Below are positions 1 through 64,000 of a DNA stretch of 64,000 nt, in pieces. Within the stretch, counting starts at the first letter, position 1, and every line of letters starts with the position of its first letter. Source of the stretch: Ramlibacter terrae (GTDB lineage Bacteria > Pseudomonadota > Gammaproteobacteria > Burkholderiales > Burkholderiaceae_C). Position numbers and translations under genes: made by a program. Below the pieces are notes generated by a model. The model saw nothing but the letters and a program-made list of their open reading frames with translations, was not told where the DNA came from and made no database searches. The stretch is taken from contig CP053418.1 of NCBI GenBank assembly GCA_013127575.1, positions 1,054,001-1,118,000 of the forward strand, read 5' to 3'.

Positions 1-660
1 GCCGGGAATCGGTTCCACCGAGATGGAGCCGAGGAACTGCCGGATCACTCCTTCGCGGCCGAGGACCTCGGGGCTGCGGGTGCTGGGATGCGTGAGCTTC
101 TGGTAGCCCGAAATGATGCGGTCGAGGTAATCGGGGTTGGAAGGCGCGTCGGCGGCACCGCCGGTGTCCTGTCCCCCGAGCTGGCGGGCGGGAGACAGGT
201 TGAGGGCGGCCTGCCCGTTCGAGGTGGAAGTGTCCAGCCGTAGCTCGTCGATCACGCGCTCGGCCAGCGACCGGCTCTTGAGGAGCTCCTGCTGCGTGCG
301 GATCGAGGCGGCGTCGTCGCCGCGGCGATTCTGGTCGGGGTCGTTCTGGAACTGCACCACGCGCGGCGTCACCTGTTCGATCTGCAGGATGACGCTGGAG
401 CGGTACACGGGCGTGCTGAGGAAGGTGCGGACCGCCGCCACCGTGGCGCCGAGCGCGATGACCGGGAGCAGCGTCCACTTGTGCTTGTAGACGATCCGGC
501 CGATGTCGGTCAGGGTCAGGGAATCGTCGCCGACCGGGTCCTCGTCGGGGCGCACCGCTCCGCCCAGCTGCAGTTGGTGCGGCTGGCGCAGGGCCAGTTC
601 GTTGGCGACGGTCGGGGCGAATCCCGATGCGTCGTCCCGCGAGAGTTCGGAGGCTGACAT
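1..660 (-). CDS. Wzz/Wzc-type polysaccharide chain-length determinant, N-terminal part (cut by window edge)
   Basis: The frame is open from an ATG at 660 to the window edge (220 residues). A soluble leader of about 55 residues is followed by IVYKHKW and a hydrophobic segment at about residues 61-80, the usual opening of Wzz proteins. LLKSRSLAERVIDEL (about residues 106-120) and SVEPIPG (about 214-220) match the periplasmic Wzz domain. The family controls polymer length in exopolysaccharide assembly at the inner membrane; many members continue into a cytoplasmic tyrosine autokinase, but that part would lie outside the window, so the kinase half is inferred only. It follows the export-protein gene by 48 bases on the same strand, so the two are probably one operon. 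Confidence 0.8.
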   Translation of the reverse strand, partial: MSASELSRDDASGFAPTVANELALRQPHQLQLGGAVRPDEDPVGDDSLTLTDIGRIVYKHKWTLLPVIALGATVAAVRTFLSTPVYRSSVILQIEQVTPRVVQFQNDPDQNRRGDDAASIRTQQELLKSRSLAERVIDELRLDTSTSNGQAALNLSPARQLGGQDTGGAADAPSNPDYLDRIISGYQKLTHPSTRSPEVLGREGVIRQFLGSISVEPIPG

Positions 661-708
661 GGCGTTTTTCTTGTGGGTGGTGCCGTCCGGGTGAACGCCC
701 GGCTGAGC

Positions 709-1520
709 TTAAGGCACGAGCGCCGAGAAGGGGTTGATCGAGTTGATGACGTCGCGGAACACGGAGTCCGTCAGCAGGACGCGGGTCGGGTCGCGCAGGA
801 TGACCACCAGGTCGTCGCCGCGCAGCTGGGGATCGTCGGCCTCGCCGGCGCGGATCCGCTCGACGTCGAACGTCGCGACCGGCGGGCGCCGTCCTGCCCT
901 TGCCGGTACACCTTCACTTCGGTGGCCTTCGCGATGCGGCCCGGGCCGCCGGCCATCGCCAGCGCCCGAAGGAGCGTCATCTCGCCGACGATGGGATAGA
1001 TCCCCGGCTTGCCCACGGCGCCGTCGAGGGTGATCTGCTGCGTGGTGAATTCCTTGATGAAGACCGAGACCTGCGGGTCTTGCAGGTACTTCTGCGCATA
1101 CATGCTGGCGATGTGCTCCTCGGCCTGGTGCTGGGTCAGGCCGGCGAGGGTGACCGAGCCGATCAGCGGGAGCGAGACGTAGCCGGCCGCATTCACGCGG
1201 ACGCTGCGCTTGCCGTTCTCGACGTTCAGAACCTCGATGTCGAGGAGGTTGTTGGCGCCGATGCGGTATTCCGCGCCAAGGCCGGTTCCCATCGCCGGCA
1301 CGGGCCCGGAGGGTTGGGCGCCCCCGCCCGCATCCGCCGGTGCGGCCTGTGCGCCGGCGGCGACGCCGCCCGCCTTGGGGACGGGCGGAAGGTTGCGGAA
1401 CTGTCCATCCGGCGCGGAGGGCGACAGGATGTAGTTTTCGATCGAGCGCTGCGCGAAGCTCCCGGTAGCCACCAGTGCCAATGCCCCCGCGAGCGCAAAC
1501 CGAACCAGAGTCGGAGACAT
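709..1520 (-). CDS. Polysaccharide export outer-membrane protein (Wza-like, Poly_export/SLBB)
   Basis: Exopolysaccharide export channel subunit in the outer membrane and periplasm. The ATG at 1520 opens a signal peptide (hydrophobic core LAGALALVATGSFA). No lipobox cysteine follows it, unlike classical Wza. YRIGANNLLDIEV at about residues 86-98 is the start of the Poly_export domain; GYVSLPLIGSVTLAGLT follows, and GKPGIYPI begins the SLBB repeat. One base is lost near 882; after it the protein continues ATFDVERIRAG and ends NSINPFSALVP with stop at 709. The usual length for the family is about 270 residues, as here. It is the first gene after a recognisable promoter and precedes the Wzz/Wzc-like gene. 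Confidence 0.85.
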
Positions 1521-1540
1521 ACAGAACCCCTAAAAATCGA

Positions 1541-1569
1541 AGTGTAAGGAAGTATCACCGTACTTCCAA
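1541..1569 (-). promoter_or_regulatory. Promoter of the exopolysaccharide operon with an operator-like dyad
   Basis: On the minus strand, TTGGAA (1569-1564) and TACACT (1546-1541) are separated by 17 bases, a plausible sigma-70 promoter, 21 bases upstream of the export-protein ATG. A perfect dyad GGAAGTA-N6-TACTTCC (1548-1567) occupies the spacer between the two hexamers, where a bound repressor would block polymerase. The gene-free gap is only 66 bases, so the promoter must be here unless transcription comes from the upstream gene. Confidence 0.5.
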
Positions 1570-1586
1570 CAAAGCCTCTACAGGGC

Positions 1587-6637: not shown

Positions 6638-7538
6638 ATGCATTACCCCACCATCGAGGACGCGATCGGGCGCACGCCGCTCGTGGCCTTGCAACGCATC
6701 GGCGCCGGCGACAACGCGCGGCGTGGCAACGTCATCCTCGCCAAGCTCGAAGGCAACAACCCCGCCGGCTCCGTCAAGGACCGGCCCGCGCTGTCGATGA
6801 TCCAGCGCGCCGAGGAGCGCGGCGAGATCAAGCCGGGCGACACGTTGGTCGAGGCCACCTCCGGCAACACCGGCATCGCGCTGGCCATGGCGGCCGCGAT
6901 CAAGGGCTACCGCATGGTGCTGATCATGCCGGAGGACCTGTCGATCGAACGCGCGCAGACCATGAAGGCTTTCGGCGCCGAACTGGTGCTCACGCCCAAG
7001 AGCGGGGGCATGGAGTACGCGCGCGACGGCCGAGAACATGCAGCGCGAAGGCAAGGGCCGCGTGCTGGACCAGTTCGCCAACCCCGACAACCCGCGCATC
7101 CACTACGAGACCACCGGCCCGGAACTGTGGGAGCAGACGTCCGGGCGCATGACGCACTTCGTGAGCGCGATGGGCACCACCGGCACCATCACCGGCGTGT
7201 CGCGCTTCCTCAAGGAAAAGAACCCGCAGGTGCGCATCGTGGGGGCCCAGCCGAGCGAAGGCTCGCGCATTCCCGGCATCCGCAAGTGGCCCGAGGAATA
7301 CCTGCCGAAGATCTACGACCCGTCCACCGTCGACGAACTGGTCTACGTTTCGCAGGACGACGCGGAGGAGATGTGCCGCCGGATGGCGCGCGAAGAAGGG
7401 ATCTTCGCGGGCATCTCCGCCGCCGGCGCATGCTGGGTCGCGCAGCAGGTGGCGCAGCAGGTCGAGAACGCCACCGTGGTCTTCGTGGTGTGCGACCGCG
7501 GCGACCGCTACCTGTCCACCGGCGTCTTTCCCGCGTGA
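6638..7538 (+). CDS. cysM: Cysteine synthase B (O-acetylserine/thiosulfate sulfhydrylase)
   Basis: PLP enzyme of about 300 residues making cysteine or S-sulfocysteine from O-acetylserine. The PLP lysine is in NPAGSVKDRPA (Lys47), the phosphate-binding loop is TSGNTGIALA, and the second glycine loop is SAMGTTGTITG. CysM rather than CysK is favoured by the NPAGSVKDR context and the charged RKWPEEYLPKI loop. A frame break near 7030 restores CCTGG (Arg-Asp-Leu-Ala-Glu-Asn). It overlaps the next gene by four bases, so the NUDIX protein is translationally coupled. Confidence 0.9.
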
Positions 7539-8057: not shown

Positions 8058-8068
8058 GGAGACTCTGA

Positions 8069-8296
8069 ATGGAATTCGACAAGGAAATCGACACCCGCGG
8101 CCTGAACTGCCCGCTGCCCATCCTGAAGGCCAAGAAGGCGCTGACCGACATGCAGAGCGGCCAGCTGCTCAAGGTGGTGTCGACCGACGGCGGGTCGCTG
8201 CGCGACTTCCAGGCTTTCTCCAAGCAGACCGGCAACGAGCTGGTCGAGCAGCAGACCGTCGGCAGCGAGTACGTCCACGTGCTGCGCCGCCGCTGA
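8069..8296 (+). CDS. TusA-family sulfurtransferase
   Basis: Small (75 residues) sulfur-carrier protein. The TusA signature is in LNCPLPILKAKKAL, with the persulfide cysteine Cys14 in CPxP. TusA relays sulfur for tRNA thiolation or molybdopterin, and relatives serve other sulfur transfers. It lies 11 bases after the NUDIX gene and on the cysM strand, which gives a sulfur-metabolism theme. It ends four bases from the convergent galU. Confidence 0.9.
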   Translation: MEFDKEIDTRGLNCPLPILKAKKALTDMQSGQLLKVVSTDGGSLRDFQAFSKQTGNELVEQQTVGSEYVHVLRRR

Positions 8297-10299: not shown

Positions 10300-13115
10300 T
10301 CACGCCGCGCGCCAGCTGCGCCTGCAGCTTCTCGAGCGCCGCCGTGAAGTCGGTGATGCGCTTGCGTTCCTGCTCGATCACCGCCGGCTTGGCCTTGGAG
10401 ACGAACGCTTCGTTGGCCAGCTTGGCGTTCGCCTTCGCCAGTTCGCCCTGCAGCCGCGCGGCTTCCTTGCCAGGCGCGCCTTCTCGGCGGCGACGTCGAT
10501 TTCCATGTACAGGCACAGGCGCGTGTCGCCCACCACCGCCACCGGCGCCGATTGCGCCGCGGCAGCCCAGGCGGCTTCGTCGTCGAACACCTTGACTTCG
10601 CTGAGCTTGGCCAGCGCCTGCAGCACCGGCGCGGCTTCGCGCATGAAGCCGGCGTCGCCCAGCACGTAGGCGGGCAAACGCACGGCCGGCGAGACGTTCA
10701 TCTCGCCGCGCAGGTTGCGGCAGGCGTCGACCACGGTCTTCAGTTTCGCGACCCCAGGCTTCGGCCTCGGGCGAGACGTTCGCCGGGTTCGCTTCGGGAT
10801 AGGGCGCGACGCTGATCGAGTCGCCGCTCTTGCCGGCGACCGGGGCGACCTTCTGCCAGAGCGCCTCGGTGATGAACGGGATCACCGGGTGCGCCAGCCG
10901 AAGAATCGCTTCCAGCACGCGGATGAGCGTGCGGCGGGTGCCGCGCTGCTGCGCGGCGTCGCCGGTCTGGACCTGCACCTTGGCGATCTCGAGGTACCAG
11001 TCGCAGTATTCGTCCCAGACGAACTGGTAGAGCGCGTTGGCCACGTTGTCGAGGCGGTAATCGGCGAAGCCGCGCGCCACGTCGGCTTCGGCCTTCTGCA
11101 GCAGCGAGACGATCCAGCGGTCGGCCGGCGTGAGGGTGGCGTCCTGCTCGGAGAGGTCCTTGCCCTCGCAGTTCATCAGCACGAAGCGCGTGGCGTTCCA
11201 GAGCTTGTTGCAGAAGTTGCGGTAGCCCTCGCAGCGCTTGGCGTCGAAGTTGATCGAGCGGCCCAGCGTGGCGAGCGACGCGAACGTGAAGCGCAGCGCG
11301 TCGGCGCCGAAGGCCGGGATGCCTTCGGGGAATTCCTTCTCGGTGTTCTTGCGCACCGTGGGCGCGGTCTCGGGCTTGCGCAGGCCGGTGGTCCGCTTTT
11401 CCAGCAGCGGCGGCAGCGCGATGCCGTCGATCAGGTCGACGGGGTCGAGCACGTTGCCTTCCGACTTGCTCATCTTGCGGCCCTGCGCATCGCGCACCAG
11501 GCCGTGGATGTAGACGTGCCGGAAAGGCACCTGCCCGGTGAAGTGCGTCGTCATCATGATCATCCGGGCGACCCAGAAGAAGATGATGTCGTAGCCGGTC
11601 ACCAGCACCGTCGAAGGCAGGTACAGGTCGAGGTCCTTGGTCTTCTCCGGCCAGCCGAGGGTGGAGAAGGGCACCAGCGCCGAGGAGTACCGGTGTCGAG
11701 CACGTCGGCGTCGCGCGTGAGCTTGCGGCCCGGCGCCGGGCCTGCGCCTCGGCTTCGCTGGCGGCCACGTAGACCTTGCCGTCCTCGTCGTACCAGGCCG
11801 GGATCTGGTGGCCCCACCAGAGCTGGCGCGAGATGCACCAGTCCTGGATGTTGTTCATCCACTGGTTGTAGGTGTTGACCCAGTTCTCGGGCACGAAGCG
11901 CACCTCGCCGCTCTGCACCGCGTCGATGGCCTTCTGCGCGATCGACTTGCCCGTCGGATCCTTGTCGCTGACCTTGGTCATCGCGACGAACCACTGGTCC
12001 GTCAGCATCGGCTCCACCACCTGCCCGGTGCGGGCGCAGCGCGGCACCATCAGCTTGTGCTTCTTGGTCTCTTCGAGCAGCCCCTGCGCTTCGAGATCGG
12101 CGACGACCTTCTTGCGGGCGACGAAGCGATCGAGCCCGCGGTAGGCCGCCGGCGCGTTGTCGTTGATCGTGGCGTCGAGGTTCAGCACGCCGATGATCGG
12201 CAGCTGGTGGCGCTGGCCCACCGCGTAGTCGTTCGCGTCGTGCGCGGGCGTCACCTTGACGACGCCGGTGCCGAATTCGCGGTCGACGTAGTCGTCTGCG
12301 ATCACGGGGATGTCGCGGTCGCACAGCGGCAGCTTCACGCTCTTGCCCACCAGGTGGCGGTAGCGCTCGTCTTCCGGGTGCACCATCACGGCGACGTCGC
12401 CCAGCATCGTTTCCGGCCGCGTGGTGGCGACGGTCAGGTGGCCGCTGCCGTCGGCCAGCGGATAGCGGATGTGCCAGAGGAAGCCGTCCTCCTCCTCGCT
12501 CTCCACCTCGAGGTCACTGACGGCGGTCTTGAGCTCGGGGTCCCAGTTGACCAGCCGCTTGCCGCGGTAGATCAGGCCCTGCTCGTAGAGCTGGACGAAG
12601 GTCTGGGTGACGATGGTCGACAGCTTGTCGTCCATCGTGAAGTACTCGTGCGACCAGTCCACGCTGTCGCCCATGCGGCGCATCTGCGTGGTGATGGTGT
12701 TGCCGGACTTCTCCTTCCACTCCCAGACTTTCTTGACGAAGTTCGGGCGGCCCAGGTCGTGCCGGCTCTGGCCCTGCTCCTGCAGCTGGCGCTCCACCAC
12801 GATCTGCGTGGCGATGCCCGCGTGGTCGGTGCCCGGCACCCACAGCGTGTTGAACCCGCGCATGCGGTGGTAGCGCGCCAGGCTGTCCATGATCGTCTGG
12901 TTGAACGCATGCCCCATGTGCAGCGTGCCCGTGACGTTGGGCGGCGGCAGCTGGATGGCGAACGACGGCTCGCCGTCGCGCGGCGCGCCCGTGCCGCGGT
13001 AGCCGGCGGTCGCGTAGCCGCGCTGTTCCCACAGCGGCCCCCAGTGCGCCTCGATGGCGGCGGGTTCGAAGGATTTGGAGAGGCTGTCCAGCCCGGGTTG
13101 TTCGGAGGTGCTCAC
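10300..13115 (-). CDS. valS: Valine-tRNA ligase
   Basis: Class I aminoacyl-tRNA synthetase charging tRNA-Val, about 940 residues. The HIGH motif is in [12 protein letters not shown] (about residues 62-73), the editing domain carries [10 protein letters not shown], and KMSKS is in [12 protein letters not shown]-terminal coiled coil (about 60 residues, [11 protein letters not shown]) is typical of ValS. Frame breaks lie near 11755, 11695 (restores CCTGG: Asp-Thr-Trp-Tyr-Ser), 10740 and 10480. The exact end is uncertain: one frame stops at 10300 without overlap, another runs to 10226 into the convergent gene. Confidence 0.93.
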
Positions 13116-17579: not shown

Positions 17580-18316
17580 TCAGCCGACCGGCGCGAACAG
17601 GTCGACCCGGTCCGTCACGATCCCGGCGGTGCCGAGCTCGATCAGGCGCTGCGCCGCCCACTCGTCGTTCACCGTGTAGCTCAGGCACTTCATGCCCATG
17701 CCGTGCACCTTGCGGACCAGTTCCGCGTCCCACAGCGCGTGGTTGCAGACGATGGCGGCGCACTCCAGCTGGCGCGCATGCTCGAAGCAGCCGTCCCACA
17801 GCGTGTCCAGCAGCAGGCCGCGCGGCAGTTCGGGGTGCGCCGCCTGCGCCGCCTGCAGCGATTCGGGACGGAACGAGGTCAGGAAGGGCGGCACTTCGGC
17901 GTTCGCCCAGAGCCGCGCGGCATGCCGCGCGACGATGTCGCCCGTTTCCGCTTCGCGCCCGGGCGTCGGCTTGATCTCGATGTCGAGGAAATGGCCGTTG
18001 GCCAGGCACCAGCGCGCCAGGTTCTCGAAAGCGGGGATCGGCTCGCCGGCGTAGGCGCGCGAATGCCAGCTGCCGGCGTCGAGCCAGGCGAGCTGGTCGA
18101 AGCTGTGGTCGCCGGCGACGCCGATGCCGTTGGTGGTGCGTTCCAGCCGCGCGTCGTGCAGCAGGAAGGGCACGTTCTCGTTGGACAGCTTCACGTCGCA
18201 TTCGAACATGCGGTAGCCGTGGGAAGCGCCCAGCCGGAATGCCGCCATCGTGTTCTCGGGCGCCAGCTTGCCCGCGCCGCGATGGGCGATCCAGCGCGGG
18301 TACGGCCAGTGCTTCA

Positions 18317-18320
<4 letters not shown>
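17580..18320 (-). CDS. ugpQ: Glycerophosphodiester phosphodiesterase
   Basis: Cytoplasmic hydrolase, 246 residues, cleaving glycerophosphodiesters to glycerol-3-phosphate and an alcohol. GDPD motifs: [17 protein letters not shown] with the catalytic HRG...[22 protein letters not shown] with the second catalytic His, and DIEIKP. No frame break. Last gene of the ugp operon; its ATG overlaps the ugpC stop by four bases. Confidence 0.95.
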
Positions 18321-19330
<1,010 letters not shown>

Positions 19331-19332
19331 TC

Positions 19333-20186
19333 TTATTTCTCTGTATCGACCAGGCCCTTGACGAACCACTTCTGCATCAGGATCACGACCACGGCCGGCG
19401 GCAGCATGGCAGGATGGCCGTGGCCATCACCACGTTCCACTCGATGTAGACCTCGCCGAAGATCAGCCGCTTGATGCCCATCACGATGGGGTACATCTTC
19501 TCGTCGGTGGTCACCAGCAGCGGCCACAGGTACTGGTTCCAGCCGTAGATGAACTGGATGACGAACAGCGCCGCCATCGAGGTCTTGGACAGCGGCAGCA
19601 GCACGTCCTTGAAGAAGCGCATCGGCCCGGCGCCGTCCATGCGCGCGGCTTCCACCAGTTCGTCCGGCACCGTCATGAAGAACTGCCGGAACAGGAAGGT
19701 GGCTGTGGCTGAAGCGATCAGCGGAACCGTCAGGCCGCTCATCGTGTTGAGCATCCCCGGGTTGGAGACCACCTCGTAGGTCGGCCCGATGCGCACTTCC
19801 ACCGGCAGCATCAGCGTGACGAACACCATCCAGAAGACGATGTTGCGGGCCGGGAAGCGGAAGTAGACGATGGCGAAGGCCGACAGGATCGAGATGGCGA
19901 TCTTGCCGATGGCGATGATCAGCGCGCTGGCCAGGCTGATGCCCATCATGGGCAGCGCCGGCGACACCGAAGCGCCGGCTTCGGTCTTGCCGCCGAACAG
20001 CGCGAAGCGGTAGCTCTCCACGATGTTGCTGCCGGGCAGCAGCGAGATCGGGTTGCTGGTCATGATCTGCTCCGCCGTCTGCGTGGAGCCGATGAAGGTC
20101 ACGTAGATCGGGAAGAACACGACCACCACGCCCAGAATCAGGATCAGGTGCGTGAAGAAATTGAGGATGGGGGTGCGCTGGATCAT
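19333..20186 (-). CDS. ugpE: Glycerol-3-phosphate ABC transporter, permease subunit
   Basis: Inner-membrane permease, about 284 residues with six predicted helices. The EAA loop that docks to UgpC is [18 protein letters not shown] break near 19410 (one G lost in CTGGCC) removes the last 25 residues from the main frame; restored it reads [19 protein letters not shown] and ends at 19333. Ten bases after ugpA. Confidence 0.93.
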
Positions 20187-38770: not shown

Positions 38771-38821
38771 CTCGCCGCAGGCGCCCGGCCGCAGAAATGC
38801 CGACGGCGGTATTCTGGAGCG

Positions 38822-39274: not shown

Positions 39275-40000
39275 GCGTTCTGCGGGTTGCGACCTACAAC
39301 ATCCACAAGGGCGTCCAGGGGGATGGGCCCCACGCGCCGGCTGGAAATCCACAACCTCGGGCATGCCGTGGAGCAGCTCGACGCCGACATCGTCTGCCTG
39401 CAGGAGGTGCGCAAGCTGCATCGCCGCGAGGAACAGTACTTCACCCGGTGGCCCGAGCTGCCGCAGGCGGAGTTCCTGTGCCCCGAGGGCTACTACCCGG
39501 TGTACCAGACGAACGCGCGCACCAAGCACGGCGAGCACGGCAACGCGCTGCTGTCACGCTGGCCGGTGATCTCGCACGGGCACGAGGACATGTCGGACCA
39601 CCGCTTCGAGCAGCGTGGCCTGCTGCACGTCGAACTGCAGGTGCGGCGCCGTTCGGTGCACGTGATCGTGCTGCACCTCGGACTCATCGCGGGCAGCCGG
39701 GTGCGCCAGCTGGAGAAGCTGGCCGACTTCATCGACCGCGAGATCCCGCGCACCGCGCCGCTGCTGGTGGCCGGCGACTTCAACGACTGGGGCGGCAAGC
39801 TCCGGCCGGTGATGAACTCGCACGGCTTCAAGGACTACCGGGGCGAGCGCGTCGCCACCTATCCCTCGCGCCTGCCGCTGACCCAGCTCGACTACGTCTA
39901 TGCCCGCGGGCTCAAGCCGACCAGCCTCGAAGTGCCCCGCGGCCGCATCTGGTGGCGCATGTCGGACCACCTGCCGCTGATCGCGGACTTCAAGCTCTGA
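39271..40000 (+). CDS. Endonuclease/exonuclease/phosphatase family protein
   Basis: About 242 residues. EEP fold: RVATYNIHKGVQG, DADIVCLQEVRKL, HGEHGNALLSRWPV, HLGLIAGSRVRQL, GDFNDWGG and MSDHLPLIADF carry the metal and catalytic residues (Asn, Glu, His, Asp-Asn, His). A break near 39322 separates the first 16 residues. Always next to clsB in this layout; likely phospholipid- or nucleic-acid-directed phosphoesterase. Confidence 0.85.
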
Positions 40001-40008
40001 GCGCGCCG

Positions 40009-41256
40009 ATGGAGCGCGACCCCTCCGAGCAGTGGGGCCTGCACCGCGGGGTGCCGACGCTGCGCCACGGCCACCACCTGCAGCTGCTCGAAGGCAGCCT
40101 GCACCTGTTCCCGGCGATGATCACGGCGATCGACGCCGCGCGCGCCGAGGTGCTGCTGGAGACCTACATCTTCGACTTCACCGGCAGCGCCGCCGACGTG
40201 GCGCATGCGCTGGAACGGGCGGCGCGCCGGGGCGTCGCCGTGCGCGTGGTGGTGGACGGCTTCGGCACGCCCGAGCTCCCGCCGCCCCGGCGCCTGCGGC
40301 TGGAAGCGGCCGGCGTGCAGTGGCTGGCGTATTCGCCGCCGGGCCGGCTCGGCATGCTGCTGCCGGGCCAGTGGCGGCGGCTGCACCGCAAGCTGTGCGT
40401 CGTCGACGGTGAAGTCGGGTTCTGCGGCGGCATCAACATCCTCGACGACTTCCACGACCCGAACCACGGCGCGCTGAATTCGCCGCGCCTCGACTTCGCG
40501 ATCCGCGTCGTCGGCCCGCTGGTGGGCGAGATGCGCACGACCATGGTCCGCCAGCTTGCGCGGATCGACGCGATGGGCCGCCTCAAGCGCGCGCACTGGA
40601 TGGGCGCGCTCGAACTCTGGCGCGCGGTGGACATGCCGCACACGCCCGCGCCGCATGTGCCGAGCCACGGCGAGCCCGACGCGATGGCCGCGCTCCTGCT
40701 GCGCGACAACCTGCGCTTTCGCGTCGGCATCGAGCGCGCCTACCTGCGCGCCATCGGGGGCGCGCGCGAAGAGATCATCATCGCCAACGCCTACTTCGTG
40801 CCGGGCGGCCGCCTGCGCCGCGCGCTGGTCCGCGCGGCCGAACGCGGCGTCAAGGTCAGCCTGCTGCTGCAGGGCCGCTACGAGTACTTCATGCAGTACT
40901 ACGCGGCGCGGCCGGTGTTCGGCGCCTTGCTGCAGGCGGGCTGCGAGATCCACGAATACGCGCCGAGCTTCCTGCACGCGAAGGTGGCGGTGATCGACGG
41001 CCACTGGGCCACCGTCGGCTCGAGCAACCTCGATCCGCTGAGCTTCCTGCTGGCGCGCGAGGCCAACGTGGTGGTGGACGACCGCCGCTTCGCCGGGCGC
41101 CTGCGCGAGCGGCTGCTGTTCGCGATGGAGCACCGGGGACAGCGCATGGACGCCGCCGGCTACGCGCGCCGTTCGCGCTGGCAGCGCATGAAGGAAGCGG
41201 TCGCGCGGCTGGCGATGCGGCTCGCGATCATCGTGCAGGGGAAGCGCTACAAGTGA
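40009..41256 (+). CDS. clsB: Cardiolipin synthase B
   Basis: 415 residues, intact. Phospholipase D superfamily with two HKD motifs: HRKLCVVDGEVGFCGG at about residue 126 and HAKVAVIDGHWATVGSSN at about residue 323. No N-terminal membrane helices, as in ClsB. Condenses phosphatidylglycerol (or PG with PE) to cardiolipin. The following gene starts within its stop. Confidence 0.93.
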   Translation: MERDPSEQWGLHRGVPTLRHGHHLQLLEGSLHLFPAMITAIDAARAEVLLETYIFDFTGSAADVAHALERAARRGVAVRVVVDGFGTPELPPPRRLRLEAAGVQWLAYSPPGRLGMLLPGQWRRLHRKLCVVDGEVGFCGGINILDDFHDPNHGALNSPRLDFAIRVVGPLVGEMRTTMVRQLARIDAMGRLKRAHWMGALELWRAVDMPHTPAPHVPSHGEPDAMAALLLRDNLRFRVGIERAYLRAIGGAREEIIIANAYFVPGGRLRRALVRAAERGVKVSLLLQGRYEYFMQYYAARPVFGALLQAGCEIHEYAPSFLHAKVAVIDGHWATVGSSNLDPLSFLLAREANVVVDDRRFAGRLRERLLFAMEHRGQRMDAAGYARRSRWQRMKEAVARLAMRLAIIVQGKRYK

Positions 41257-44678: not shown

Positions 44679-45403
44679 ATGCTCATGAAAGCCGATCCGT
44701 CCAGCCAACTTTCGCCCGGCCAGCCCGATGAAGGCACGCCCGTGTCGGTGAAGATCCGCGAGCGCATCGTCGCGGCGCGCAAGCGCTTCCATTCCAACGA
44801 CAACATCGCGGAATTCATCCAGCCCGGCGAGCTCGAGGCGCTGCTCGACGAGGTCGAGCAGAAGATGCAGGGCGTGCTCGACAGCATGGTGATCGACACC
44901 AAGAGCGACCACAACACCGCCGACACCGCGCGCCGTGTCGCCAAGATGTACATCAACGAGGTGTTCCGGGGCCGCTATGTCAAGGCGCCGCGGATCACCG
45001 AGTTCCCGAACGCCGAGCACCTCAACGAGCTGATGATCGTCGGCCCGATCACCGTGCGCTCGGCCTGCAGCCACCATTTCTGCCCGGTCATCGGCAAGCT
45101 GTGGATCGGCGTGATGCCGAACGAGCACACCAACGTCATCGGCCTGTCGAAGTACGCGCGCCTCGCCGAATGGGTGATGGGGCGCCCGCAGATCCGGGAA
45201 GAGGCCGTGGTGCAGCTGGCCGACCTGATCATGGAAAAGACGCAGCCCGACGGCCTCGCGATCGTGATGGAGGCCAGCCACTACTGCATGGCTGGCGCGG
45301 CGTGAAGGACCTGGACAGCAAGATGATCAACTCGGTGATGCGCGGCGTGTTCCTGAAGGACCCCGCGCTGCGCCGCGAATTCCTCGCGCTGATCCCGCGC
45401 TGA
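44679..45403 (+). CDS. folE: GTP cyclohydrolase I
   Basis: About 240 residues; homodecameric zinc enzyme that makes dihydroneopterin triphosphate from GTP. Zinc/catalytic motifs VRSACSHHFCPVIGKLWIG and EASHYCMAWRGV (the latter after a break near 45292 that restores CCTGG). FPNAEHLNELMIVGP and LAEWVMGRPQIREEAVVQL also match. ATG at 44679 or 44685. An N-terminal 25-residue extension precedes the fold. Confidence 0.95.
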
Positions 45404-48197: not shown

Positions 48198-49849
48198 TCA
48201 GGCGCTGAGGCGGCCGAAGGCCAGCAGCGCCTCGACGTCGGTGCGGTACATCTTCAGCAGCGGGCCGGGCGACAGCGCGCCCGCGCTTTCGAGCACGCGC
48301 TCCACCGGCAGCTTGATGCCGCTGATGTGCAGCGTGATGCCGCGCTCGGCCAGCAGTTTGCGCAGTTGCGCGAACACCTCGACGCCCGTCGCGTCGACAC
48401 GGTTGATCGGCTGCGCGAACAGGCAGACGTGCCGCACGTCCGGGTGCGCCGCAATGTGTTCCACCACCGCGCGCTCGAAGGCGCTGGCCGACGCGAAATC
48501 CAGCTCCGCGTCCATGCGCAGCGCATAGAGCTGCGACGCCAGCGGCGGCAGCTTCCACAGGTGGCGGTCGCGCAGGCTGCCGTCGGCATGCAGGCCCACC
48601 TCGATGATGCGCGGGTGCAGCCGCAGGTAGAGGAAGTGCGCCAGTCCCAGCACCACGCCGGTGAGCACGCCCCAGTAGATGCGCGGCGCCGACAGCAGCG
48701 TGACGGCGAAGGTCACGGCCGCGGTCGTGGCCTCGACGCGGTCCACCCGCCACAGCTCGCGCAGGATGCGCGGCCTGAACAGCCCGGACACGGCGGCGAT
48801 GACGACCGCCGCCAGCACGGCGCTCGGCACGTGCGACAGCGCGGGGGTGAGGAACAGCAGAACGAGCAGCACGAAGCCGGTGGCGATCACCGTCGCCCAG
48901 CCGGTGCGCGCGCCGGCGTAGAGCGTGATCGCCGAGCGCGAGAAGGAAGTGCTGGTGGCGAAGCTGCCCGACAGCGCCGAGGCGATCTTGCCCATGCCCG
49001 GCCCACCAGGTCCTGGCCGGCGTCCCAGCGCTTGCCGTCGCGCTGGCTCTCGATCTTGGCGCTGGAAGCCATCTCGAGCGAGCTGACGAGCGCGAGCACG
49101 AGGGCCGGCGCCAGCAGCGCGCTGAAGCGTTCCCAGCCGGGCCAGTCGGGCCAATAGGGCGCGGGCAGGCCCTGCGGCAGGGCGCCGACGACCGCGCCGT
49201 GCGCCGAGTAGCCGGTGGCGGCACTGAGCGCGCCGGCGGCGGCCAGCACGATCAGCATGATCGGCAGCCCGGGCGCATGGCGCTTGGCCAGCACGAACAG
49301 CAGCAGGCTCACCAGTCCGTACGCCAGCGCCTGCGGATCGAAGCGCGGCGCTTCGAGCAAGGTGGCCAGCGTTCCCTGCAACCCGAGCAGCGCCGGAAGT
49401 TGCGAGGCCATGATCAACAGCGAGGCGGCGAGCGTGAAGCCGGCCAGCACCGGCGAGCTCACGAGGTTGAGCACCCGGGCGGCGCGCAGGCTGCCGACGA
49501 CGAACTGCACACCGCCGGAGAGCAGCGCGAGCCACACCGCGAGCGCCACCCGGGCGGCGCCACCGGGTTCGGCCAGGCCCGCGAGCGACGCGCCGACCAG
49601 CACGCTGCTCAGGGCCGATGGACCCACTGAGAGACGGGTCGACGCGCTGAACAGCACCGCCACCAGCGCCGGCAGGAAGGTCGCGTAGAGGCCGGTCACC
49701 AGCGGCATGCCCGCGAGGCCCGCGTACGCGACCGACTGCGGGATCATGACGACGGCGACGGTGAGGGCGGCGACCGTTTCGCCGCGCCAGAGATCGCCCG
49801 TGAGGCGGGGCCAGCCGAGGAAGGGGAACCAGCGTGACAGCTTCGACAT
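48198..49849 (-). CDS. SulP-family inorganic anion transporter with STAS domain
   Basis: About 550 residues. Membrane part: GETVAALTVAVVMIPQSVAYAGLAG (first motif), LVGQGMGKIASALSGSFATSTSFSRSA (after a break near 49005 that restores CCAGG). STAS domain at the C-terminus (NRVDATGVEVFAQLRKLL). Predicted sulfate/bicarbonate or dicarboxylate uptake. Convergent with the oxidoreductase and 12 bases after the sulfatase, whose product sulfate it might take up (inference). Confidence 0.87.
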
Positions 49850-52752: not shown

Positions 52753-55204
52753 ATGGCGAAACGCAAGGGACCGTCGCGCGCATGGATGGCCGACCGCGGC
52801 TGGAAGGCCTTCGCGTTCCAGCAGGAGGTGTGGCAGGCGGTGGCCGACGGGCGCAGCGGCATGCTGCATGCCACCACGGGTTCGGGCAAGACGTACGCGG
52901 TGTGGCTCGGCATGCTCGACGCGCTGCTGGCGCGGCATCCGCGCGGCCGCGGCGCGGAGCCCTTGCGCGCCATCTGGCTCACGCCCATGCGCGCGCTCGC
53001 GTCGGACACCGCGAAGGCGCTGGCGCAGCCGCTGAACGCGCTGGCGCCTACACGGACCCTCGGCCTGCGCACCGGCGACACGGCGAGCGCGGAGCGCGCG
53101 CGCCGGGACCGGCGCATGCCCACCGTGCTGGTGACGACGCCGGAATCGCTCACGCTGATGCTCACCCGCGAGGCGTCGCGCGAGGAACTCGCCGGCGTGG
53201 AGTTCGTCGTGGTGGACGAGTGGCACGAGCTGATCGGCAGCAAGCGCGGCGTCCGGTGCAGCTGGCCCTGGCCCGCTTGCGCCGGCTCCATCCCGGCCTG
53301 GTGACTGGGGCCTGAGCGCCACGCTCGGCAACCTGGAAGAGGCGATGGCGGTGCTGTGCGGTCCCGACCCCGAGCCGCCGCCCTTGCTGGTGCGCGGCAA
53401 GATCGACAAGACGCTGGTGATCGACACGCTGATCCCGCCCGACCCGGGCAAGTACTCGTGGGCGGGGCATCTCGGCGCGCGCATGCAGGTGCCGGTGGTG
53501 GAGGAGATCGAGCGGTCCGGCACCACGCTCGTGTTCACCAACGTGCGTTCGCAGGCCGAGGTCTGGTACCAGCTGCTGCTGGAGGCGCGGCCCGAATGGG
53601 CGGGCCACATCGCGCTGCACCACGGCTCGCTCGACAAGGGCACGCGCGAGTGGGTGGAGCAGGGCCTGAAGGAAGGCACGTTGCGCGCGGTGGTCGCCAC
53701 TTCGTCGCTCGATCTCGGTGTCGACTTCCTGCCGGTGGAGCGCGTGCTGCAGATCGGGTCGGCCAAGGGCGTCGCCCGCATGATGCAGCGCGCCGGCCGC
53801 AGCGGCCATGCGCCCGGACGCGCGAGCCGCGTCACGCTCGTTCCCACGAACACGCTGGAGATCATCGAAGCCGCGGCGGCGCGGCGCGCCGCGCAGGCGG
53901 GCCGCGTCGAGAAGCGCACGCCGCCCGACAAGCCGCTGGACGTGCTGGTGCAGCACATCGTCACCGTGGCGCTCGGCGGCGGCTTCGAGGCCGATGCGCT
54001 GCACGCGGAAGTGGCGTCGGCGTGGTCGTACCGCAACCTCACGCGCGCCGAGTTCGACTGGGCGGTCGCCTTCTGCGAGCGCGGCGGCGAAAGCCTCGGC
54101 GCCTATCCCGAGTACCACCGCATCGTGCGCGGCGAGGATGGCGTCTACCGGGTCAAGGACGGCGGCGTCGCCAAGCGGCACCGCGCCGGGCATCGGCACG
54201 ATCGTCAGCGACGCGTCCATGCAGGTCAAGTACATGAGCGGCGCCAGCTGGGCACGATGGAAGAAGGGTTCATCGCCCGCCTGCGCAAGGGCGACTGCTT
54301 CTTCTTCGCCGGCCGGCTGCTGGAGTTCATCCGCGTGCAGGACATGGCGGCCTACGTGAAGAAGGCGACGCGGCACAAGGGCACGGTGCCGACCGGATGG
54401 GCGCCAAGATGGCGCTCTCCGCCGAACTGAGCGACGCCGTGCTGGAGATGATGCAGGAGGGCGCGCAGGGCACGTACACCGAGCCCGAACTGGAAGCGGC
54501 GCGGCCGATGCTGCTGACGCAGCAGCGCCTGTCGAAGATCCCCACGCCGCGCACGCTGCTGGTGGAAAGCTTCCGGTCGCGCGAAGGGCAGCACCTGTAC
54601 GTCTACCCGTTCGCGGGCCGCAACGTGCACCTCGGGCTCGCCAGCCTGCTGGCGTGGCGCCTCGCGCGCGACGCGCCCAACACCTTCAGCATCTCGATCA
54701 ACGACTACGGGCTCGAACTGGTGAGCGCGGCGCCCTTCGACGTCGGGCCGGTGACCAGCGGCATGCTGTTCAGCGCCGACGACCTGCTGCACGACGTGCT
54801 CGCCTCGCTCAACTCCACCGAGCTGGCGCAGCGGCGCTTCCGCGAGATCGCGCGGGTGGCGGGACTCATCTCCACCGGCTATCCGGGCCAGCCGAAAAGC
54901 ACGCGGCAGCTGCAGGCATCGAGCGCGCTGTTCTTCGAGGTGTTCCGCAAGTACGACGCCGGCAACCTGCTGTTGAACCAGGCCGAGCGCGAGGTCCTGA
55001 GCCGGGGAGCTGGAGATCTCGCGCCTGGGCGAAACGCTGCGGCGGATGCGCGAGAAGACGCTCGATTTCGTGGAGCTGCGGCACCCCAGCCCCATGAGCG
55101 TCCCGCTGATGGTGGAGCGCTTCCGCGAGAAGCTGTCCACCGAGCAGCTGTCGCAGCGCCTCGATCGCATCCTGCGCGACATGGAGGGCGACGCCGCCTC
55201 CTAG
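52753..55204 (+). CDS. Ligase-associated DEXH-box helicase (Lhr-Core type)
   Basis: About 820 residues. Walker A TTGSGKT at residues 41-47, motif Ia [25 protein letters not shown] box [10 protein letters not shown], motif III LSATLGN, motif V-VI region [11 protein letters not shown] and [11 protein letters not shown], followed by the Lhr winged-helix and core domains. Breaks at about 53252 (CCAGG), 53309 and 54395 (CCTGG), others near 54185, 54250 and 55005. The Lhr-Core/ligase/MBL exonuclease set acts in DNA repair; here the ligase and exonuclease lie 8 kb upstream on the same strand. Confidence 0.9.
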
Positions 55205-59078: not shown

Positions 59079-59709
59079 ATGATCAAAGTCGGCATTGTGG
59101 ATGACCACGCGATCGTTCGGTCGGGACTCAAGCAGTTCTTCTCCGAGCAGGTCGACCTGCGTGTCGTGGGCGAGGCATCCAGCGGCCGCGAGGCCATCGA
59201 CCTCGTCCGCACCACGGAAATGGACGTCCTGGTGATGGACCTGTCCATGCCCGGGCAAAGCGGTATCGACGCGCTGGGCATGATCCGCGCCAAGGCGCCG
59301 GACGTCGGCATCCTGATCCTCTCCGGCTACCCGGAAGAGCATTACGCGATGAACCTGATCCGCCAGGGCGCCAGCGGCTACCTGAACAAGGAATGCGAGC
59401 CGATGGAGATCGTCAACGCGATCCGCACGATCGCGCTGGGCCGCCGCTACATCTCCCCGGCCGTGGCCGAACTGCTGGCGCAGCAGCTCAACCGCAAGGA
59501 AGGCGGCGCGCCGCACGAGCAGCTGTCCGAGCGTGAGTTCGGTGTTCCTGAAGCTGGCCAAGGGCGAAACCGCCGGCGACATCGCCAAGGCGCTGTCGCT
59601 GTCGGTCAAGACGGTCAGCACGTACCGCACCCGCCTGATGGAGAAGATGAACCTCTCCTCCAACAGCGACCTGACGTACTACGCGCTCAAGAACAAGCTG
59701 ATCGACTGA
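59079..59709 (+). CDS. NarL/FixJ-family response regulator
   Basis: 210 residues. Receiver domain with acidic pocket VDDH, phospho-acceptor Asp54 in VLVMDLSMPG, and Lys in GYLNKECEP. LuxR-type HTH at the C-terminus (LSEREFQVFLKLAKGETAGD, then KTVSTYRTRLMEKMNL). A break near 59540 restores CCAGG and the consensus EFQVF. Divergent from the CHASE3 kinase. Confidence 0.92.
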
Positions 59710-61263: not shown

Positions 61264-61281
61264 CGTTCGGGGCGAAGGAGA

Positions 61282-62721
61282 TCAATTCTCCTTCTTCTCT
61301 TCCTTGTTCTCCACGACCTGCGTCTTGGAGATCAGCACCGGACGGCCCTTGAGCTGGTTCAGCGCCTGTACGAGCTGGAAGTCCTTGTCGCTGCCAAACT
61401 CCGGCGGCGTCTTGCGGTCGGCCGGGCTCTTCTTGGCCTCGTCTTCGGCGCGCTTGCGCGCTTCCTCGCGGGCCTTCTCGCGGTTGGCGTCCTTCACCTC
61501 GGCGCCCGGCCGCTGTTCAGGTGCTTGTCGAGGTCGGCTTCGCGGGTGCGCAGCACCGAGAACACGTTGCCTTCCTCGGTTTCGTCCACCATCACGTCGG
61601 GCACGATGCCCTTGGCTGGATCGACTTGCCGCTCGGCGTGTAGTAGCGCGCCGTGGTCAGCTTCAGGCCGGTGTCGGGGCCCAGCGGGCGCACCGTCTGC
61701 ACCGAGCCCTTCCCGAAGGTCTGGCTGCCCGGGATGGTGGCGCGCTTGTGGTCCTGCAGCGCGCCGGCGACGATCTCGCTGGCGGAGGCGGAGCCTTCGT
61801 TCACGAGCACCACCAGCGGCACCGTCTTGAGCTGGGCCGGCAGGCGGCGCAGCGGGTCGGGACCGGCACGGCGCTGGTAGAACTCGGGCGACGCCTTGTA
61901 CGCGAACTTGCTTTCGGGCAGCTGGCCGTTGGTGGAGACCACGGTCACGTTGTCCGGCAGGAAAGCCGCGGAGATGGCGACGGCCGCGTCGAGCAGGCCA
62001 CCCGGGTCGTTGCGCAGGTCGAGCACCAGGCCCTTCAGGTTGGGATCGGCCTTGTACAGCTCTTCCATCTTGCGCACGAAGTCGTCGACGGTGCGTTCTC
62101 GAACTGCGACAGGCGGATCCAGCCGTAGCCCGGCTCGACGACCTTGCCCTTGACGGACACGGTCTTGATCTCTTCGCGGGTGATCGTCACCGGGAAGCTG
62201 CGGTTCTCGTCCTTGCGGTAGATCGTCAGCATCACCTTGGTGTTCGGCTCGCCGCGCATGCGCTTGACCGCTTCCGACAGGCTCAGGCCCTTGACGGCGG
62301 TCTCGTCGATCTTGGTGATCAGGTCGTTGGTCTTGAGGCCGGCACGGAAGGCGGGCGAGCCTTCGATCGGCGACACCACCTTGACCAGGCCGTCTTCCTG
62401 CGAGATCTCGATGCCGACGCCGACGAAACGGCCGGACGTGCCTTCGCGGAATTCCTTGAAGGACTTCTTGTCGAAATACTGGGAGTGCGGGTCGAGGCTG
62501 GCGACCATGCCGGCGATGGCATCGGAGATCAGCTTCTTCTCGTCGACGGGCTCCACATAGTCGGTCTTGACCATGCTGAAGACGGCGGCCAGTTGCTGGA
62601 GTTCTTCCAGCGGCAGCGGGGCAAGGGAGCCACGCGCGACGGTCTGCAGCGAAACCGTGGTCAGCGCTCCGGCGAGGGCGCCAACGGAAATCCAGCCGGC
62701 AATCTTGAGTTTGTGGCTCAT
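61282..62721 (-). CDS. Carboxyl-terminal processing protease (S41)
   Basis: About 479 residues. Signal peptide/anchor, PDZ domain (GVGIEISQEDGLVKVVSPIE, GSPAFRAGLKTNDLITKID), catalytic Ser in NEGSASASEIVAGAL and Lys in GSQTFGKGSVQTV. Breaks near 62100 and 61616 (restore CCAGG; the latter gives SIQAKGIVPD) and near 61517. A Lys/Glu-rich C-terminus follows. Periplasmic processing of peptidoglycan-linked proteins is typical. Same strand as gpmA and moeB. Confidence 0.93.
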
Positions 62722-62836
62722 GGGTTCAGCAAGTCCTCTCGACTTTCAATATACACCTGAGAAAGTTCTCTGATGCAGCGCGGAAACCGTGGTTCCATCC
62801 GGCCGCCCCCGCCTATGTGAAATAAACGCGGATTTA

Positions 62837-62854
62837 CGCAGGAGAAGTCCTACA
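62837..62854. promoter_or_regulatory. 7-4-7 palindrome upstream of ctp
   Basis: CGCAGGA, GAAG, TCCTACA: right half perfect, left half 5 of 7. 116 bases upstream of the ctp start, in the gap after gpmA. Confidence 0.3.
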
Positions 62855-62878
62855 CGGCCTGTCATCCGCCGCGCCGTC

Positions 62879-63618
62879 TCAGCCTTTGCCCTGGTTCGCC
62901 ACCGCGGCCGCCGCCTTCGCCGCCGCCGCGGCGTCGCCGAGGTAGTAGTGGCGCAGCGGCTTCAGGCCGGCGTCGAGCTCGTACACCAGCGGAATGCCGT
63001 TCGGGATGTTCAGGCCGACGATGTCCCGGTCGGAAATCCCGTCCGGTACTTCACCAGCGCCCGGATCGAGTTGCCGTGCGCCGCGACCAGCACACGCTTG
63101 CCTGCTCTGATCGCCGGCGCCATCGATTCGTTCCAGAAGGGCAGCACGCGGTCGACGGTGTCCTTGAGGCATTCGGTCAGCGGCACTGGCCGGGCGCCAG
63201 CTTCGCGTAGCGGATGTCGCCGCGCTCGCTGCGCGGATCGCCCGGCTCCAGCGCCGGCGGCGGCGTGTCGTAGCTGCGGCGCCAGACCATCACCTGCTCG
63301 TCGCCGAACTTGCGCGCCGTCTCGGCCTTGTTCAGCCCCTGCAGCGCGCCGTAGTGGCGCTCGTTCAGGCGCCAGGAGTGCACCACCGGCAGCCAGGTGC
63401 GGTCCATCTCGTCGAGGCAATGCCACAGCGTGCGGGTCGCGCGCTTGAGCACGCTGGTGTGGCATACGTCGAAATCCCACCCTTCCGCCTTGAGCAGGCG
63501 GCCGGCGGCCTTGGCCTGTTCGATGCCGGTATCGGTCAGGTCGACGTCGGTCCAGCCGGTGAAGCGGTTCTCCGGGTTCGGTGGATTCGCCGTGGCGGAT
63601 CAGGACGAGCTTGTGCAT
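62879..63618 (-). CDS. gpmA: 2,3-bisphosphoglycerate-dependent phosphoglycerate mutase
   Basis: About 247 residues. [12 protein letters not shown] (catalytic His in RHGE; the break near 63580 restores CCTGG), [19 protein letters not shown], and the second His in [15 protein letters not shown]. Breaks at about 63185 (CCAGG) and 63045 (CCTGG) also restore. Glycolytic interconversion of 3- and 2-phosphoglycerate. Upstream of ctp on the same strand. Confidence 0.93.
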
Positions 63619-63704
63619 GGGAAGGAAAGATGGGCGGGGGAACCCGGCATTCTAGAATCGGGGGCTGCACCGGATGGTCCGGGAGCCAGAAAAAACCGAA
63701 CCGA

Positions 63705-64000
63705 ATGAAGTTTCTGCTGGACAACTGGCACCTGATCCTCGTGGCCTGCGTTTCCGCCGGCATGCTGATGTGGCCGACGCTGGGCCGCGGCATCCGCGCC
63801 GGCGGCGTCTCCGCCAACGCGGCGGTGCTGCTGATCAACCGCGAGAAGGGCGTGGTCGTGGACGTGAGCGAGACCGACGAGTTCGCGGCCGGGCACATCG
63901 CCGGGGCGCGCAACGTGCCGGTCAACCAGCTCGAGAAGCGGCTGCCCGAGGTGGTCAAGAACAAGACCGTGCCGGTCATCCCGGTGGACGCCACCGGGGC
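63705..64000 (+). CDS. Membrane-anchored rhodanese-domain protein, N-terminal part (cut by window edge)
   Basis: 98 residues visible. N-terminal helix (WHLILVACVSAGMLMWPTLG), then the rhodanese fold (VVVDVSETDEFAAGHIAGA, NVPVNQLEKRL). Around the catalytic loop the sequence reads VIPVDATGA, with Asp where the active Cys usually stands; the region is too close to the edge, and too near base-call noise, to conclude loss. Divergent from gpmA. Confidence 0.75.
   Translation, partial: MKFLLDNWHLILVACVSAGMLMWPTLGRGIRAGGVSANAAVLLINREKGVVVDVSETDEFAAGHIAGARNVPVNQLEKRLPEVVKNKTVPVIPVDATG

What the first reader, a model, noticed from the sequence alone, without database searches (positions are those of the whole stretch)
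1..64000. Frame breaks mark a damaged CCWGG motif across the window: evidence for CCWGG (Dcm-type) DNA methylation
Restoring the conserved codon at the frame breaks gives CCTGG or CCAGG at more than 30 sites. Examples: GpmA (about 63045, 63185, 63580), the NarL-type regulator (59540), the DEXH helicase (53252, 53309, 54395), SulP (49005), FolE (45292), AspS (37380, 37905, 38465), UbiB (32850, 33640), ValS (11695), CysM (7030), Ctp (61616). The lesions are CCWGG to CCGG, CTGG, CCAG, CGG or CCCGGG. Genes without breaks (ugpQ, ugpC, clsB, kinase, moeB) show the assembly is otherwise clean. Long-read basecallers are known to fail at 5mC CCWGG sites. The organism probably carries a CCWGG methyltransferase, and most frameshifted genes are functional.
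Basis: partly seen in the sequence, partly recalled or inferred. Interest (0 to 1): 0.75.

Follow-up and report, generated by a model that had tools for sequence, protein, structure and literature searches.

The report
Sequencing scars reveal CCWGG DNA methylation
The many broken genes in this soil bacterium's genome are mostly nanopore sequencing errors at one probably methylated DNA word (CCWGG), and the genome carries an enzyme gene of the kind that methylates that word, so the genes are very likely intact in the living cell.

Summary
The finding holds. The window lies in a one-contig genome of 5,277,406 bp, exactly the published length of Ramlibacter terrae H242, sequenced by Oxford Nanopore and assembled with Unicycler. 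CCWGG has a frame-breaking indel in 228 of 1531 aligned cells, CCSGG in 12 of 1037; relative-versus-relative controls give 5 of 6439 at CCWGG. CCWGG is the worst of the 5-mers counted at least 60 times. Its density is 1.9-2.1 per kb against 5.7-6.0 in five relatives. Sister strain B156, same paper and platform, has no match to the methyltransferase and does not show it (11 of 1381). The one C5-cytosine methyltransferase match of the genome is Dcm-like, beside Vsr and an MvaI/BcnI-family restriction enzyme. Nanopore failure at Dcm sites is published (PMC6591954, passages). 'Otherwise clean' is only partly right: a background of other indels exists. Methylation is inferred, not measured.

The parts
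   Evidence: 5 of 5 relatives each; CCWGG in 4, 0 and 5 relatives
61505..62100 (.).
   Evidence: 5 of 5 relatives each; CCWGG in 5 relatives at 61615; Pfam
59535..59545 (.).
   Evidence: 5 of 5 relatives, CCWGG in 5
53245..54400 (.).
   Evidence: 5 of 5 relatives each; CCWGG in 0, 3 and 5
48995..49010 (.).
   Evidence: 5 of 5 relatives, CCWGG in 4
45285..45298 (.).
   Evidence: 5 of 5 relatives, CCWGG in 5
37370..38470 (.).
   Evidence: 5 of 5 relatives each; CCWGG in 5, 4 and 5
32840..33645 (.).
   Evidence: 5 of 5 relatives each; CCWGG in 3 and 5
11685..11700 (.).
   Evidence: 5 of 5 relatives, CCWGG in 3
7020..7035 (.).
   Evidence: 5 of 5 relatives, CCWGG in 2
17580..19369 (-). ugpQ-like (GDPD) and ugpC-like (ABC ATPase) genes without breaks: internal control
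   Evidence: no break supported by at least 3 relatives; Pfam GDPD and ABC_tran/TOBE_2
38797..41256 (+).
1..64000 (.). Whole window: 117 frame breaks supported by at least 3 relatives, 83 at a relative's CCWGG. The proposed cause lies outside the window, at G000:C1:5312-6646 (+, MvaI/BcnI-family REase), 6667-7086 (-, Vsr), 7091-8188 (-, Dcm-type methyltransferase)

Best explanation
The frame breaks are consensus errors of a nanopore assembly. The strain's Dcm-type methyltransferase puts 5-methylcytosine into CCWGG; the basecaller had not learned that signal and misread the site; the long-read consensus kept the misreading. Set against the retention seen in controls, I estimate that about 60-65% of CCWGG sites are altered: in the window region a quarter to a third of all sites by a frame-breaking indel (nearer a fifth in a second region), the rest by substitution. 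Shown: motif-specific damage in two aligned regions and depletion in all stretches sampled; nanopore data; the methyltransferase gene; no match to it, and no CCWGG damage, in a sister strain from the same paper. Inferred: that the base is 5mC, that this gene makes it, and that the genes are intact in the cell. The methyltransferase, Vsr and the MvaI/BcnI-family nuclease probably form a CCWGG restriction-modification system, with Vsr repairing deaminated 5mC.
For: CCWGG indels 228/1531 against CCSGG 12/1037; controls 0-2 per 1163-1335 CCWGG cells in each of five relatives; CCWGG first of the 5-mers counted at least 60 times. Non-overlapping sites shared by at least two relatives: H242 58 of 361 broken and 79 intact, B156 2 of 329 and 193, G030 0 of 323 and 207; CCSGG in H242 1 of 178 broken; Fisher P 6e-10 (CCWGG against CCSGG) and 2e-15 (H242 against B156). 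Second region at 3.79-3.84 Mb: 90/912 cells, 24 of 224 sites against CCSGG 1 of 106. Depletion in the window and all 20 further stretches, 1.35-3.00 per kb. Genome length equal to H242, nanopore method. Methyltransferase: Pfam DNA_methylase 280.7 bits, TIGR00675 319.3 bits over its cut-off, best solved relatives 3lx6 and 3me5. Vsr TIGR00632 145.9 bits and MvaI_BcnI 129.4 bits, both over cut-off. Dcm-type gene beside the nuclease in 4 of 6 other genomes with that nuclease. Published precedent: about 70% of consensus errors in Dcm motifs, about 0.4% error (PMC6591954, passages); here about 3.8 fewer sites per kb than relatives, also about 0.4% if the true density equals theirs.
Against: No raw signal, reads or short-read data could be examined. 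38 of 128 breaks have no CCWGG in five relatives, so other indels contribute; B156 shows such a background (47 breaks in 54 kb, 10 at CCWGG), and even its CCWGG rate, 0.8%, is above that of the relatives (0.08%). The methyltransferase scores below the cut-off of the enterobacterial Dcm model (418.9 of 710 bits), so homology alone does not settle its specificity. In the second region the indel rate at CCWGG is lower (9.9%) and controls are noisier (19/3567). Vsr was found near the nuclease in only 2 of the 6 other genomes.
Confidence: 0.95

Rival explanations
1. Real mutations: the strain has a decaying or hypermutating genome, with indels at CCWGG caused by the Vsr/Dcm machinery or by cleavage and faulty repair at CCWGG.
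For: A Vsr nicking enzyme and a nuclease gene of an MvaI/BcnI type are present; 5mC is a known mutational hotspot (general knowledge).
Against: Deamination would give C to T changes; CTWGG is not among the 16 commonest outcomes, whereas CCGGG, CTGG and CCGG are. One error type depends on the strand that the assembler printed in both regions: CCAGG to CCAG at 0 of 360 places on + and 25 of 453 on - (P 4e-7), and 2 of 316 against 9 of 175 at 3.8 Mb (P 0.002); CCAGG to CCGGG does so only in the window region (33 of 360 against 12 of 453, P 8e-5; at 3.8 Mb 22 of 316 against 9 of 175, P 0.56). G007, with two Dcm-like genes, Vsr and an MvaI/BcnI-family gene, is not depleted in CCWGG (6.00/kb, O/E 0.98).
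Confidence: 0.02
2. Ordinary nanopore noise without a role for methylation: a poor run with random or homopolymer indels.
For: A background exists: B156 has 47 breaks in 54 kb, and non-CCWGG breaks exist in H242.
Against: CCWGG has about 13 times the indel rate of CCSGG and is first among 5-mers counted at least 60 times; B156 from the same paper has 0.8% at CCWGG and keeps 193 of 329 shared CCWGG sites intact against 79 of 361 in H242.
Confidence: 0.01
3. The modified base at CCWGG is something else (for example N4-methylcytosine) or is made by another enzyme.
For: MvaI's own methyltransferase is, as I recall, an N4-cytosine enzyme, and the nuclease here is of the MvaI/BcnI family. Modification chemistry cannot be read from misreads. 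Only three methyltransferase families were searched in this genome.
Against: No N6_N4_Mtase (PF01555) match at E up to 0.001 in the genome; one N6_Mtase (PF02384) match; one C5 methyltransferase, Dcm-like.
Confidence: 0.04
4. CCWGG is rare here because of restriction avoidance, and the frame breaks are a separate matter.
For: CCWGG O/E is about 0.5 and a candidate nuclease exists.
Against: Avoidance cannot give frame-breaking indels at the site; G007 with a similar gene set shows no avoidance.
Confidence: 0.02

Closest known systems
Dcm-motif consensus errors of nanopore assemblies (Wick et al. 2019, PMC6591954; passages seen)
   Same: Errors concentrate in CCAGG/CCTGG of native DNA because the basecaller model was not trained on Dcm methylation; about 70% of consensus errors and about 0.4% error. 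Here I estimate 70% or more of the breaks and about 0.4% lost sites.
   Different: There Klebsiella with an Illumina-based reference; here a Ramlibacter type strain, diagnosed from the finished sequence and relatives alone, with the errors mostly scored as frame breaks.
Modification-mediated nanopore errors (Chiou et al. 2023, PMC10687267; outline and first part of Results seen)
   Same: Strain-specific modification leaves motif-specific errors in nanopore-only genomes.
   Different: There mismatches at GCAGC and GCTGG in Listeria; here many indels at CCWGG.
Dcm / EcoRII-type C5-cytosine methyltransferases with Vsr
   Same: Best solved relatives 3lx6 and 3me5 (that these are Dcm is recalled), TIGR00675 dcm superfamily over its cut-off, Vsr gene next door; the misread motif is CCWGG.
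   Different: Below the cut-off of the enterobacterial Dcm model NF007772; paired here with a putative restriction enzyme, whereas E. coli Dcm is solitary (recalled).
MvaI/BcnI-family restriction endonucleases
   Same: PF15515 match over its cut-off; a PD-x4-E-x-K-like stretch is visible in the sequence; MvaI is named a neoschizomer of EcoRII, a CCWGG enzyme, in PMC4081073 (passages).
   Different: 444 aa; the Pfam match covers residues 73-313 of the 324-aa piece scanned, so the N-terminal part is extra. No match in the PDB at E up to 1 for that piece, and a two-sequence profile reaches R.MvaI only at E = 0.51.

Membership tests
Nanopore Dcm-motif consensus artefact | Assembly made from native nanopore reads | tested here: met
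   Genome length 5,277,406 equals H242; MinION plus Unicycler 0.4.7 in the passages seen, no short reads named there
Nanopore Dcm-motif consensus artefact | Errors concentrate at CCWGG and spare CCSGG | tested here: met
   228/1531 against 12/1037; 58/361 against 1/178
Nanopore Dcm-motif consensus artefact | Absent from a strain without the methyltransferase sequenced the same way | tested here: met
   B156 (G014): no match to the methyltransferase, CCWGG indels 11/1381, density 6.17/kb
Nanopore Dcm-motif consensus artefact | Short reads or raw signal show intact, methylated sites | not testable with these tools
   No reads available
Dcm-type CCWGG C5-cytosine methyltransferase | C5-methylase domain with an open frame and catalytic motifs | tested here: met
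   PF00145 280.7 bits, 365 aa without a stop; FPCQPFS, ENV, QHRER visible (motif names recalled)
Dcm-type CCWGG C5-cytosine methyltransferase | Enterobacterial Dcm model NF007772 over its cut-off | tested here: not met
   418.9 bits, cut-off 710: a relative, not shown to be an enterobacterial Dcm orthologue
Dcm-type CCWGG C5-cytosine methyltransferase | Specificity CCWGG, not CCNGG | tested here: inconclusive
   Supported indirectly: CCWGG damaged, CCSGG not; enzyme not assayed
Dcm-type CCWGG C5-cytosine methyltransferase | Product is 5-methylcytosine | not testable with these tools
   Needs bisulfite, EM-seq or mass spectrometry
Vsr mismatch endonuclease | TIGR00632 over its cut-off, next to a Dcm-type gene | tested here: met
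   145.9 bits, cut-off 97.85; adjacent
Type II restriction-modification system (CCWGG) | Restriction endonuclease gene beside the methyltransferase | tested here: met
   PF15515 129.4 bits, adjacent locus; Dcm-type gene beside the nuclease in 4 of 6 other genomes, about 8 kb away in one, not found in one
Type II restriction-modification system (CCWGG) | The nuclease cleaves unmethylated CCWGG | not testable with these tools
   MvaI cuts CCWGG and BcnI CCSGG (recalled); family membership does not decide which

The most novel reading that the evidence does not exclude
Misread scars in a finished nanopore assembly, read against relatives, are enough to point a methyltransferase to its target without any raw signal; applied to public assemblies this could annotate specificities in bulk. 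For this strain it points to a CCWGG system of Dcm-type methyltransferase, Vsr and an MvaI/BcnI-family nuclease on a low-GC island behind gyrB.
Probability: 0.55. Interest if true: 0.42.

Novelty: new member of a known kind. Interest (0 to 1): 0.27.

Why it matters
The H242 genome, of a species type strain, was reported with 2,807 protein-coding genes of 5,653 (PMC9705899, passages). Anyone who reads its gene losses, pseudogenes or scarcity of CCWGG as biology would be misled. The case also shows that assembly errors can carry information about a strain's DNA methylation.

Tried and rejected
Real pseudogenes or hypermutation: rejected because of several breaks in genes of an essential kind, the strand-dependent CCAG lesion and the B156 control. 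CCNGG specificity: rejected because CCSGG is not damaged. A second damaged motif: after masking CCWGG of the compared relative, no 5-mer comes near CCWGG in rate and counts (best CTCAG 7/106, control 10/422); 6-mers had no control and small counts (for example ACTTGG 6/46 masked, AATACC 7/41 unmasked). GGWCC and GGSCC look raised in cell counts (16/620 and 35/1110; GGWCC 18/325 in the second region); on non-overlapping sites they are 2/138 and 7/220 in the window region, 4/59 and 0/124 in the second, so this stays weakly unexplained. N4-cytosine methyltransferase: no PF01555 match. Strand signature: the CCAG lesion repeats in both regions, the CCGGG one is significant only in the window region, and CCACG leans the other way at 3.8 Mb (12 of 316 against 1 of 175, P 0.04; in the window 9 of 360 against 19 of 453, P 0.25); my pooled test hid this and should not be used alone. 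Replichore test by GC skew: the 20 stretches give no clear sign change, so I do not claim on which replichore the second region lies. Solved-structure search for the nuclease: nothing at E up to 1 from a 324-aa piece; a two-sequence profile reached R.MvaI at E = 0.51, not significant. PADLOC gave no model for the nuclease. The stretch of B156 at 4.38-4.46 Mb, fetched as a possible continuation, gave no base covered by at least three relatives; its alignments were pooled, and it made the script stop with an error after its first three data sets; one search ran the controls that were missing. A query from L097 gave no long stretch common to the relatives and was dropped in favour of L096. Rows dropped before counts: alignments shorter than 200 columns, and sites whose 10-base flanks had gaps or under 60% identity (283 CCWGG cells skipped beside 1531 counted). 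Cells are not independent (five relatives share sites); the non-overlapping site counts are the safer ones.
Full report
WHAT THE WINDOW IS. The window is bases 1,054,001-1,118,000 of a one-contig genome of 5,277,406 bases whose tabulated completeness is only 63.72%. A protein of the window finds Ramlibacter records as its best matches. [quoted passage not shown] no short reads are mentioned in the passages seen. That the window is H242 is an inference from the equal length and the genus; I consider it safe. The same paper describes R. montanisoli B156, sequenced in the same way; its larger contig (4,459,501 bp) has the length of contig 1 of handle G014 and of the B156 record.

CHECK OF THE OBSERVATION. 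I fetched the syntenic 75-80 kb of five relatives (handles G028, G030, G047, G052, G023) and aligned them with the window and its two 20-kb flanks. Each of the 17 coordinates in the finding is a frame break against five of five relatives, within 17 bases; 15 of 17 have CCWGG in at least two relatives, two have it in none. In the 104 kb, 128 breaks are supported by at least three relatives (117 in the window); 90 of 128 (83 of 117) coincide with CCWGG in at least one relative, against 22.6% for random positions; CCSGG coincides at 26 of 128, against 16.6%. Of one relative's CCWGG sites, 67-76% recur in at least one of four others, and 89% of the surviving CCWGG sites of H242 recur in at least one of five; with these yardsticks the share of breaks caused at CCWGG comes out at about 70% or more (0.72 with the second). 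Breaks could not be scored in the first 6 kb of the window.

RATES AND CONTROLS. Where a relative has CCWGG, H242 has a frame-breaking length change in 228 of 1531 cells; at CCSGG in 12 of 1037; at GCWGC in 12 of 2211. Each relative compared with the other four gives 0-2 per 1163-1335 CCWGG cells, 5 of 6439 together. A count over 5-mers seen at least 60 times puts CCWGG first, 0.149; the next ranks are overlapping words or words with few counts. Counting each place once, and only places where at least two relatives have the motif: H242 58 broken and 79 intact of 361; B156 2 and 193 of 329; G030 0 and 207 of 323; CCSGG in H242 1 and 65 of 178, in B156 3 and 61 of 172. Against the intact share of B156 and G030, about 60-65% of CCWGG sites are altered in H242. 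Much of it is substitution: CCAGG reads CCGGG in 11.9% of cells, against 0.8% in control G028. A second region at 3.79-3.84 Mb agrees: 90 of 912 CCWGG cells broken, with a noisier control of 19 of 3567; 24 broken and 47 intact of 224 sites, CCSGG 1 broken of 106.

DEPLETION ACROSS THE GENOME. CCWGG density is 2.14 per kb in the window, 2.07 in its flanks and 1.92 in 18 further stretches (360 kb), single stretches ranging from 1.35 to 3.00, against 5.65-6.03 in the five relatives; CCSGG is not reduced, 5.63-6.00 against 3.80-4.95. If the true density equals that of the relatives, about 3.8 lost sites per kb is about 0.4% of the genome, the size of the Dcm error that Wick et al. report for default nanopore models (about 0.4%, about 70% of consensus errors; PMC6591954, passages).

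THE SISTER STRAIN. B156 has no match to the H242 methyltransferase at E up to 0.001, a normal CCWGG density (6.17/kb) and CCWGG indels in 11 of 1381 cells, although it shows a general background: 0.0087 per 5-mer against 0.0040 among relatives and 0.0164 in H242. Like for like, with four comparison genomes, breaks per 10 kb are 18.0-20.4 in H242, 7.5-7.7 in B156 and 1.2-2.4 in the relatives. This separates the two causes: background noise comes with the platform, CCWGG damage goes with the methyltransferase. It is one pair of strains. G007, which has two Dcm-like genes, Vsr and an MvaI/BcnI-family nuclease, keeps a normal density (6.00/kb, O/E 0.98), so having the enzyme genes alone does not remove CCWGG; how G007 was sequenced I do not know. 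G016, with Dcm-like and Vsr genes, is lower (3.34/kb, O/E 0.81).

A STRAND SIGNATURE. One error type depends on the printed strand in both regions. Normalised to CCAGG, loss to CCAG is seen at 0 of 360 places when CCAGG is on the + strand and 25 of 453 when on the - strand (P 4e-7); at 3.8 Mb at 2 of 316 and 9 of 175 (P 0.002). The change to CCGGG is asymmetric in the window region (33 of 360 against 12 of 453, P 8e-5) but not clearly at 3.8 Mb (22 of 316 against 9 of 175, P 0.56), and CCACG leans the other way there (places are binned and only roughly independent). Real mutations could not know which strand an assembler prints; a consensus that leans on reads of one orientation could. This last step is inference.

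THE ENZYME. PF00145 has one match in the whole genome, G000:C1:7172-8152; its ORF is 365 aa without a stop. It scores over the cut-off of TIGR00675 (dcm) but below that of the enterobacterial model NF007772; its best solved relatives are 3lx6 and 3me5, which I recall as Shigella Dcm. The stretch 229-287, which I take as part of the target-recognition region, is well conserved with 3lx6 and with Ramlibacter relatives. Next to it are Vsr (139 aa) and a 444-aa MvaI/BcnI-family nuclease, on a stretch of 55-60% GC between stretches of 65-71%. MvaI/BcnI-family genes are rare: 2 of 59 Ramlibacter genomes and 6 of 399 in the family, H242 included in each. In the six other genomes, a Dcm-type gene lies beside the nuclease in four, about 8 kb away in one (G007), and was not found in one (G270, near a contig end); Vsr was found in two of the six. 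PF01555 has no match and PF02384 one; other methyltransferase families were not searched. The simplest reading is a CCWGG restriction-modification system with its repair enzyme; cleavage and methylation are untested.

CONCLUSION. The phenomenon is known. A report of this instance was not seen in the library: the search 'Ramlibacter terrae' gave three papers, of which I read passages of the describing one and saw the other two as listings; 'Ramlibacter' with 'nanopore' held 16 papers, 15 listed, seen as listings apart from that one. As biology the finding is an artefact with a useful by-product: a supported, still untested, assignment of CCWGG to a Dcm-type enzyme in Ramlibacter.

Noticed in passing
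G000:C1:3073-8188 (L082) and L103:1-2484 (G016): In two Ramlibacter genomes a Vsr/Dcm-type locus sits behind what reads as the end of gyrB, with an HNH ORF in both: a possible insertion hotspot for restriction-modification islands. The gyrB identity is by eye from the translations.
   Followed up: partly
L082:3721-5214: An HNH-nuclease ORF beside the restriction enzyme, with weak similarity to Type IV methyl-directed restriction enzymes in PADLOC.
   Followed up: partly
L082:547-3073: gyrB itself appears split over two reading frames in the assembly (two overlapping ORFs seem to carry its parts, by eye), as expected if the frame breaks are errors.
   Followed up: no
window 1-64000: Misread products are strand-asymmetric with respect to the printed strand; the CCAG lesion in two distant regions, the CCGGG one clearly only in the window region.
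   Followed up: yes
G000: Completeness is 63.72% in the tool's table but 95.6% in the describing paper.
   Followed up: no
G000:C1:4318045-4319055 (L154): One N6_Mtase match; its target and any misreads there were not examined.
   Followed up: no
L138-L141 (G016): A genome with Dcm-like and Vsr genes has a lower CCWGG density (3.34/kb, O/E 0.81) than the other genomes sampled, apart from H242.
   Followed up: no
window:20183-21079: An ORF of the transporter cluster (no Pfam match of its own) spans three frame changes although it has a long open frame; in this GC-rich DNA long open frames hide breaks.
   Followed up: partly
window and 3.79-3.84 Mb region: GGWCC and GGSCC show a weakly raised indel rate that I could not explain.
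   Followed up: partly
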